Source: a virus. Taken from it: 61,237 nt of DNA. The stretch lies in the IMG/VR virus record IMGVR_UViG_3300042939_000506, positions 1 through 61,237 of that record; one strand, given 5' to 3'. Positions within the stretch are counted from its first letter, which is position 1. Each line of letters begins with the position of its first letter. The translations under genes and the position numbers were made by a program. Below are positions 58,772-59,728 of the stretch, piece after piece. The notes below the pieces were generated by a model, which had not been told where the DNA came from, searched no databases, and saw only the letters and a program-made list of their open reading frames with translations.

Positions 58772-58919
58772 ACAATGGCGTAACCACTCTGCGTTATCGA
58801 ATTAGCTGAACCCGGCAAAAAACTCGGGGAAAATAACGAAGGCGGGAGGCATTGTCGTTTTCCGATTTCACCGAAAAACTGCGGGTCGGGCGACTGCTGT
58901 GGTTCCCGAGAACAGTGGC

Positions 58920-59002
58920 TCCCTGGGGACAGGGTTCTGGCCTACTGTGGTCAGTGTGAGTGAGTTCAGGTTTGCCAGTCCCCTGCCTGGGGACACCTGT
59001 CT
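58920..59002 (+). promoter_or_regulatory. CpG-free leader with nested hairpins
   Basis: CCCTGGGGACAGGG (from 58921) and GTCCCC-TGCCT-GGGGAC (58978-58994) form short stems upstream of the CpG-free gene. The GGGGACA motif occurs in both. A promoter is not obvious; TACTGT near 58944 could be a -10. Both stems are built without CG steps. Confidence 0.45.
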
Positions 59003-59036
59003 TCTGCTGTCTCACACCCCACTGAGAGGTTTTACT

Positions 59037-59555
59037 ATGTCCAACTTCATCTCCCAGACCACTGTTGCTCCTTACAGGGCTCATGTGGCCTCTGTCATCT
59101 GCCCTGCCTATGGGTGGGACTTCCTGCAGGTGGCCACCACCACTGACACCCTTACCAAAGATGGTGAGGTGGTCACTCTGGTCTGGGGTGCCAACAAGCT
59201 GCTGAGCTTCTCCTCCACTGCAGGGTTGGTGGTTGATGGTCAAGCCCCCTGCAAATTGCAGAAACTGACCAACCTGCTGGCAGGTTCCAAAGTCATGGGA
59301 GAGACTCCAGATTCCATCTGGGCCAGCCTGCCTGCTGGCCACCCTGCCAAGTTGGGGGCTAAGGCAGCACTGAGGGCCAAAGCTGCAGAGATCCTGGTGG
59401 ACATGCTGCCTGCAACCTCAGCTGTTGATGCTGAGATTGCCAAGCTGGAGACTCCTGCTCCTGCCAAGAAGGCTCCTGCCAAGAAGGCTCCTGCCAGCAG
59501 GAAGGCAGGCAGCAAGGTGGTTGCTGCCACCACCCTGGAGGACATGGGCTTCTAG
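59037..59555 (+). CDS. CpG-free gene: unknown protein with PAKKA-type basic tail
   Basis: A 172-residue protein from ATG 59037 with AGAGG seven bases upstream. The first 80 residues are a beta-rich domain (EVVTLVWGANKLLSFSS). A helical alanine-rich middle follows, and then residues 140-160 carry PAPAKKAPAKKAPASRKAG, like the basic tails of mycobacterial HupB and H1-like DNA-binding proteins. All three arginines are AGG, and codon choice everywhere avoids CG within and across codons. A nucleic-acid-binding role is inferred from the tail only. It follows a long gap and ends at its own terminator. Confidence 0.8.
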   Translation: MSNFISQTTVAPYRAHVASVICPAYGWDFLQVATTTDTLTKDGEVVTLVWGANKLLSFSSTAGLVVDGQAPCKLQKLTNLLAGSKVMGETPDSIWASLPAGHPAKLGAKAALRAKAAEILVDMLPATSAVDAEIAKLETPAPAKKAPAKKAPASRKAGSKVVAATTLEDMGF

Positions 59556-59565
59556 CCTCACCTCC

Positions 59566-59603
59566 CAGCAGCCCCACCCCCACTGGGGGTGGGGCTTGCT
59601 GCT
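59566..59603 (+). terminator. Terminator of the CpG-free gene
   Basis: GCCCCACCCCC-ACT-GGGGGTGGGGC (59571-59595) inside a CAGCA/TGCTG outer stem. A very stable GC-rich hairpin with no CG step. Confidence 0.8.
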
Positions 59604-59728
59604 GTCTGCAGCAGGAGCCGGCTGCACCCACGAACACGGAGGCGGGGGACGAGAGCGGGTGCCGGCGGCGGGGGCGGTGGCGGGACGCCACCCGGACGGA
59701 ACGACACCCGGCCCCGGCGCGGTCGGTC

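What the first reader, a model, noticed from the sequence alone, without database searches (positions are those of the whole stretch)
58909..59618. A transcription unit with no CG dinucleotide inside a CG-rich phage genome
About 710 consecutive bases have no CG, although GC content stays high and the flanks are dense in CG. The gene (172 codons), its leader hairpins and its GC-rich terminator all obey the rule; all three arginines are AGG and no codon junction creates CG. Base composition alone cannot give this. Possible explanations: selection against a CG-directed nuclease, methyltransferase or base modification acting on this segment; a need to keep the segment free of a CG-binding protein; or recent transfer from a CG-depleted genome. 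The extent matching the whole transcript favours selection on DNA or RNA of that unit.
Basis: seen in the sequence. Interest (0 to 1): 0.92.

Follow-up and report, generated by a model that had tools for sequence, protein, structure and literature searches.

The report
Phage gene stripped of every CG
In a GC-rich phage of actinobacteria, one self-contained gene with its own promoter and terminator lacks the two-letter word 'CG' completely over 710 bases although the rest of the genome has it every ten bases, while all its other codon choices are the phage's own; this points to strong selection on that one unit, for a reason not yet known.

Summary
CG is absent from 58909-59618; the next largest gap between CGs in the 61-kb window is 46 bases. 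No other dinucleotide has a comparable gap. Recoding the same protein with the phage's codon usage gives 45.5 +/- 4.4 CGs; the chance of none is about 1e-33. Every other codon choice matches this phage's usage conditional on 'no CG', better than related phages or human-like usage. The deamination signature is absent. So it looks native and selected, not a recent CpG-poor import or a mutational scar.

The unit is a moron-like cassette beside a conserved HTH gene. CG-freeness starts about 46 bp upstream of the likely transcription start, so promoter DNA seems included. It abuts the most CG-dense segment of the window.

The protein has no close homologue. A probable distant one, gp65 of M. abscessus prophages, lies in the same slot and is the most CG-depleted of 27 genes tested there, though only partly; remoter relatives are normal. 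Best explanation: selection that exempts this unit from a CG-directed activity. The agent is unidentified. I found no published precedent.

The parts
58909..59618 (.). 710-bp stretch with no CG dinucleotide on either strand (CG is self-complementary)
58943..58948 (+). Likely -10 element TACTGT, followed at 7 nt by GTGAG (likely start near 58955), the same layout as the repeated single-gene cassettes of Gordonia phage Mariokart (TAATGT-7nt-GTGAG); no good -35 box
   Evidence: consensus scan found no sigma-70 match; inferred, start not mapped
58955..59036 (+). Leader with the inverted repeat GTCCCC-TGCCT-GGGGAC; 0 CG
   Evidence: fold not better than shuffles
59024..59029 (+). Ribosome-binding site GAGAGG, 7 nt before the ATG
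   Evidence: sequence
59037..59555 (+). ORF of 172 codons (P0001): N-terminal alpha-beta domain probably related to small actinophage proteins, then a Lys/Ala/Pro tail (PAKKAPAKKAPA)
59457..59496 (+). 2.7 copies of a 15-bp repeat GCTCCTGCCAAGAAG encoding the APAKK tail, CG-free
59570..59596 (+). 12-bp GC-rich hairpin (AGCCCCACCCCC-ACT-GGGGGTGGGGCT), terminator-like but without a long T run; CG-free
   Evidence: region z -3.3
59597..59613 (+). Second small hairpin TGCTGC-TGTCT-GCAGCA, CG-free
59619..59890 (.). Non-coding segment with the highest CG density of the window (49 CG in 272 bp, 79% GC), with 12-bp tandem repeats CCCGGGCGGTCG; directly abuts the CG-free unit
58214..58759 (-). Divergent neighbour: HTH-type DNA-binding protein (phrog_928), conserved in cluster B and Gordonia phages; marks the syntenic slot

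Best explanation
The segment is a native, single-gene moron-type cassette (promoter, leader, RBS, 172-codon gene, terminator) of a cluster-B-like actinophage. SHOWN: it has no CG while keeping the phage's own codon preferences otherwise. INFERRED: sustained selection removes CG from this unit only, because the gene must stay usable when something acts on CG in the infected or lysogenic cell. This is self-exemption from a CG-directed activity, such as a modification, a binding or silencing protein, or a nuclease. Because the likely promoter DNA is also CG-free, I favour an activity that meets the DNA over one that meets only the mRNA. A further inferred step, held with low confidence, is that the activity involves the gene's own product: a small domain with a nucleoid-protein-like Lys/Ala/Pro tail, whose probable relative gp65 in M. 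abscessus prophages also has a CG-poor gene, and which lies beside the most CG-dense non-coding DNA of the phage.
For: CG gap of 712 against a next best of 46; unique among dinucleotides; P about 1e-33 given the protein and the phage's codon usage. Codon log-likelihood conditional on no CG: this phage -115.2, M. abscessus prophage -129.9, cluster B3 -130.1, Gordonia phages -132.8, human-like -145.0, uniform -167.4 (calibrated on native genes). Amino acids are shaped too: 3 Arg (10.3 expected) and 15 Lys (6.1 expected). Leader, CDS and 3' part are all CG-free: 10.4, 44.2 and 7.8 CGs expected. Cassette layout as in the Mariokart array. Probable homologue gp65 in the same slot is the lowest of 27 genes for CG: z -2.9 overall (next -1.1) and z -2.0 at codon junctions (next -1.1). 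The densest CG segment of the window lies directly downstream.
Against: No agent is identified. No C5 methyltransferase, and no toxin, nuclease or methyltransferase match that explains CG targeting among the genes scanned. The other phage genes keep normal CG, so any CG-directed activity must leave them unharmed or act at a special time. Remoter relatives of the protein show no CG avoidance. No second phage with a CG-free unit was found. The homology to gp65 is weak (35% over about 49 residues; E 1.7e-4 per genome; a family profile built without it gives only E 0.1).
Confidence: 0.5

Rival explanations
1. RNA-level exemption: the transcript avoids CG because a CG-cutting endoribonuclease (an mRNA interferase of host or phage) is active when the gene must be expressed, a natural counterpart of the ACA-less mRNAs used with MazF.
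For: The whole transcript including leader and terminator is CG-free. Precedent in principle: cells expressing MazF can still make protein from ACA-less transcripts (PMC5408214). MqsR cuts at GC-containing sites (PMC9636575 abstract).
Against: CG-freeness starts about 46 bp before the likely start site (4.1 CGs expected there, P 0.017). No interferase was recognised in the genes scanned. I know of no RNase toxin that needs only CG. An enzyme that also cuts rRNA would not spare translation of the message.
Confidence: 0.2
2. Import from an unknown GC-rich replicon that is CG-free as a whole, followed by little change.
For: It is a cassette with its own promoter and terminator (moron-like), with no close relative in any collection searched.
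Against: Codon choice fits this phage better than every other usage tested, as well as or better than native genes do; TA avoidance is also within the range of the phage's other genes. The gp65 relative points to residence in this slot.
Confidence: 0.12
3. Artefact: a synthetic CpG-free construct or a chimeric assembly.
For: The only near-identical independent contig (L129, 100% over 8,454 bp) ends at window position 57074 and does not cover the unit. CpG-free synthetic genes exist (own knowledge).
Against: The protein matches no known construct or database entry; codon use fits this phage rather than a human style; the promoter layout and the HTH neighbour are those of this phage group. The record is an IMG/VR contig.
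Confidence: 0.05
4. Extreme expression-driven codon choice: avoidance of NCG codons and CG junctions for fast translation, with CG absence as a by-product.
For: gp65 uses a narrow, 'optimal' looking codon set (AAG, GCC, ACC, CTG).
Against: Cannot explain the non-coding leader and 3' part (10.4 and 7.8 CGs expected, 0 seen), or junction CGs (0 against 15.7 in within-gene synonymous shuffles). The major capsid gene is not depleted (z +2.3).
Confidence: 0.04
5. Mutational origin: CpG deamination of methylated DNA or a CG-context deaminase.
For: TG and CA are raised in the unit.
Against: Deamination predicts NCA codons; instead ACA is 0 (ACC 9, ACT 6), CCA 1 (CCT 9), GCA 7 of 31. TG and CA counts are what the phage's codons give once CG is excluded. 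The ORF is intact and an exact zero is not expected.
Confidence: 0.02

Closest known systems
ACA-less messages and MazF (single-protein production), and other interferase-resistant mRNAs (PMC5408214)
   Same: A message survives a sequence-specific activity because it lacks the target word
   Different: Those resistant messages are engineered and the word is 3 or more bases; here it is a natural unit, the word is 2 bases, promoter DNA is included, and no nuclease is known
Restriction-site avoidance in phage genomes
   Same: Selection removes a palindromic word from phage DNA
   Different: Avoidance is genome-wide and of longer (typically 4-6 bp) words; here it is confined to one unit and total for a 2-bp word, with CG normal elsewhere
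CpG depletion in vertebrate viruses and genomes
   Same: The same dinucleotide
   Different: Depletion there is partial and genome-wide, in hosts with CpG methylation or CpG sensors; here it is absolute, in one cassette of a bacterial virus
Phage morons (single-gene cassettes with own promoter and terminator), e.g. the Mariokart gp64-gp67 array
   Same: Own promoter, leader, RBS and terminator; the same slot; the same -10 to GTGAG spacing
   Different: Mariokart cassettes are rich in CG (largest gap in that locus 41 bp)
prophi79-1 gp65 (M. abscessus prophages)
   Same: Same slot upstream of the HTH gene, same orientation relative to it, probably related domain, Lys/Ala/Pro tail, most CG-depleted gene of its region
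   Different: Only partly depleted (38 CGs against about 50.5 expected); the tail is N-terminal; only about 35% identical over the domain

Membership tests
Moron (autonomous single-gene cassette) | Own promoter and terminator flanking one gene, absent from relatives at that place | tested here: met
   Layout; gene absent from the slot in Sour, CaiB, Mariokart, Gervas, L003 and L004. Promoter is inferred, not mapped
Moron (autonomous single-gene cassette) | Base composition differs from the surrounding genome | tested here: inconclusive
   Differs only in CG; the rest of codon use is native
Recently acquired CpG-poor foreign DNA | Codon and dinucleotide use of a different genome | tested here: not met
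   Best fit is this phage
Deamination-mutated DNA | CG replaced by TG/CA, NCG codons by NCA | tested here: not met
   ACA 0, CCA 1, CCT 9, ACT 6
Interferase-resistant mRNA | Transcript lacks the target word of a known interferase active in the same cell | tested here: inconclusive
   The word is absent, but no interferase was identified
Interferase-resistant mRNA | Avoidance limited to the transcribed part | tested here: inconclusive
   Extends about 46 bp 5' of the inferred start, P 0.017, which speaks against it; but the start itself is not mapped
Small alpha-beta domain family of actinophages (prophi79-1 gp65, Evaa gp81/gp73, ReqiPine5 gp67) | Sequence similarity of the N-terminal domain | tested here: inconclusive
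   hhalign E 1.7e-5 against gp65 homologues; per-genome E 1.7e-4; best non-member of 32,715 ORFs but E 0.1 with a profile built without it
Small alpha-beta domain family of actinophages (prophi79-1 gp65, Evaa gp81/gp73, ReqiPine5 gp67) | Same predicted fold | tested here: inconclusive
   Low-confidence model (mean pLDDT 43, N-terminal domain about 65); top viral hits are ReqiPine5 gp67 (prob 0.98) and Weirdo19 (1.00) but E about 0.015
Self-methylation or restriction cassette | Encodes a C5 cytosine methyltransferase or CG-directed enzyme | tested here: not met
   No PF00145 in the record; P0001 has no significant Pfam, PHROG or PADLOC match

The most novel reading that the evidence does not exclude
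The gene product is a CG-directed nucleic-acid factor (silencer, shut-off protein or nuclease cofactor) that acts across the GC-rich host genome or transcriptome, and its own promoter-gene-terminator unit is purged of CG so that it alone stays expressed, with the adjoining CG-dense block as a loading site. This would be a dinucleotide-coded self-exemption system.
Probability: 0.13. Interest if true: 0.95.

Novelty: categorically new. Interest (0 to 1): 0.8.

Why it matters
Total removal of a two-base word from one promoter-gene-terminator unit, in a genome that otherwise has it every ten bases and keeps its own codon taste, has no precedent that I found. It implies an undiscovered activity that reads CG in actinobacterial cells or phages. 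The unit would be a natural assay for that activity: putting CGs back should show what the cell or phage does to them. It would also be a ready design rule for expression that escapes that activity.

Tried and rejected
No close homologue of the DNA or protein in phages, plasmids, IMG/VR or GTDB genomes. Search for other CG-free units via a CG-free AKKAPAKKAPA tail pattern gave long CG-free gaps only in AT-rich, generally CG-poor contigs. A leader-motif scan gave nothing. 27 loci around the PAPS reductase and 17 around the HTH gene show no CG-free stretch in any GC-rich locus. Single-sequence structure model poor; model with 7 sequences weak and PDB fold hits not significant. Rfam none. Codon pressure from an antisense ORF considered and rejected: antisense stops do not involve CG. 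Deamination, foreign import and codon optimality are treated as rivals. Literature searches for CpG-free phage genes found no precedent; the library lacks most subscription papers.

Full report
OBSERVATION. The window is an IMG/VR virus record of 61,237 bp, an actinophage related to cluster B mycobacteriophages and Gordonia phages. It holds 6,159 CGs (o/e 1.03). Between the CG at 58907 and the CG at 59619 there is none; the next largest CG gap in the window is 46. Scaled by genome density, the gap is 71.6 for CG and at most 15.7 for any other dinucleotide.

NATIVE APART FROM CG. The same 172-residue protein recoded with the phage's codon usage has 45.5 +/- 4.4 CGs, and the probability of none is about 1e-33. 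When codings are sampled from the phage's codon usage on condition that no CG occurs, the real gene is typical: GC3 0.66 against 0.62 +/- 0.03, and every dinucleotide within 2.5 SD. TA is low, but the phage's other genes avoid TA too. The conditional codon log-likelihood is best for this phage (-115.2) and worse for M. abscessus prophage (-129.9), cluster B3 (-130.1), Gordonia phages (-132.8), human-like usage (-145.0, table from memory) and uniform usage (-167.4). The per-codon preference for the phage's own usage is as strong as in its other genes, or stronger. This disfavours recent import from a CG-poor genome. CpG deamination would leave NCA codons; ACA is 0 and CCA 1, while ACC, ACT and CCT carry the load. 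Arginine is rare and lysine common (3 R and 15 K against 10.3 and 6.1 expected), so the protein itself seems adapted. Junction CGs are 0 against 15.7 in within-gene synonymous shuffles, and the non-coding leader and 3' part are CG-free against 10.4 and 7.8 expected, so codon preference alone cannot explain it.

ANATOMY. A likely -10 box TACTGT (58943-58948) is followed after 7 nt by GTGAG, an inverted repeat, GAGAGG and ATG (59037). Gordonia phage Mariokart has the same layout in an array of single-gene cassettes in the same slot next to the HTH gene: TAATGT-7nt-GTGAG, hairpin, GAGAGAGG, ATG. A strong hairpin at 59570-59596 and a second at 59597-59613 end the unit (region z -3.3). The leader fold is not better than shuffles. 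The CG-free stretch starts about 46 bp before the likely start (P 0.017 for that part), so promoter DNA seems included. Directly downstream, 59619-59890 is the most CG-dense 272 bp of the window (49 CGs, 79% GC) with 12-bp tandem repeats. Whether the two belong together is not shown.

THE PROTEIN. No significant Pfam, PHROG or PADLOC family and no tblastn hit in phages or plasmids. Among fetched loci, the best hit is gp65 of M. abscessus prophage prophi79-1 and its homologues, close to the HTH gene in the same relative orientation. Support: hhalign E 1.7e-5; only match per prophage genome with E 1.7e-4 to 0.002. A profile of the family built without it ranks it first among non-members of 32,715 ORFs, but only at E 0.1. 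gp65 leads to Evaa gp81 (with a Rho_N-like end), the N-terminus of Evaa gp73 (a SprT-like protein) and ReqiPine5 gp67. ReqiPine5 gp67 is also the top hit of the low-confidence model in the viral fold library, next to other small actinophage proteins. I treat the relationship as probable, not proven. The Lys/Ala/Pro tail and the Rho_N fusion in a relative hint at nucleic-acid binding; this is inference.

CG IN RELATIVES. gp65 has 38 CGs against about 50.5 expected. It is the lowest of 27 annotated genes both in total (z -2.9, next -1.1) and at codon junctions (z -2.0, next -1.1). Its homologues are similar (31-42 against 47-52), but they are not independent, and the rank of this stretch among mechanically called ORFs varies from 1st to 6th (where the caller took the longer antisense ORF). 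Evaa gp81 and gp73 and ReqiPine5 gp67 show no avoidance. So CG avoidance is not a feature of the whole domain family, but the nearest probable relative leans the same way.

MECHANISM. The pattern asks for selection that acts on this unit alone. The simplest reading is exemption from something that acts on CG when this gene must work. Inclusion of promoter DNA favours an activity on DNA; an RNA-level activity remains possible. No agent is identified: no C5 methyltransferase and no recognisable nuclease or toxin match that would target CG. PAPS-reductase and ParB-like genes at 52855-56051 could belong to a DNA modification system, but nothing links them to CG.

NOVELTY AND LIMITS. I found no report of a CG-free transcription unit in a phage; the library is open-access only. 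The phenomenon rests on one assembled record. The only near-identical contig (L129) stops before the unit, so read-level confirmation is the first thing to obtain. I file the phenomenon as categorically new because no tested known kind fits, while the agent and function remain unknown.

Noticed in passing
59619-59890: Most CG-dense segment of the window (49 CG in 272 bp), non-coding, with 12-bp tandem repeats CCCGGGCGGTCG, directly downstream of the CG-free unit.
   Followed up: partly
59889-59995, 60314-60420, 60859-60965: Three copies (62-92% alike) of a 107-nt promoter/leader block, each before a small ORF: an array of single-gene cassettes next to the CG-free unit.
   Followed up: partly
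52855-56051: PAPS reductase-like gene (weak DndC and BrxP matches) with three ParB-like genes; possibly a DNA-modification module.
   Followed up: no
L125:6146-6745 (prophi79-1 gp61): Gene annotated as antitoxin, close to the CG-poor gp65, is the most CG-enriched gene of its region (99 against 74 expected, z +5.0).
   Followed up: partly
L158:15691-17112 (Gordonia phage Mariokart gp64-gp67): Array of four single-gene cassettes with nearly identical promoter, leader hairpin and RBS (TTGCTC-17-TAATGT-7-GTGAG).
   Followed up: partly
58214-58759: The HTH gene next to the unit is the second most CG-depleted gene of the window (45 against 58.7 expected, z -3.3).
   Followed up: no
L118: IMG/VR locus with 55% GC but CG o/e 0.62, unusual for its GC content.
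   Followed up: no
L129: 8,454-bp contig of sample 3300042946, 100% identical to window 48621-57074: the same phage was assembled twice, but this contig stops before the unit.
   Followed up: yes
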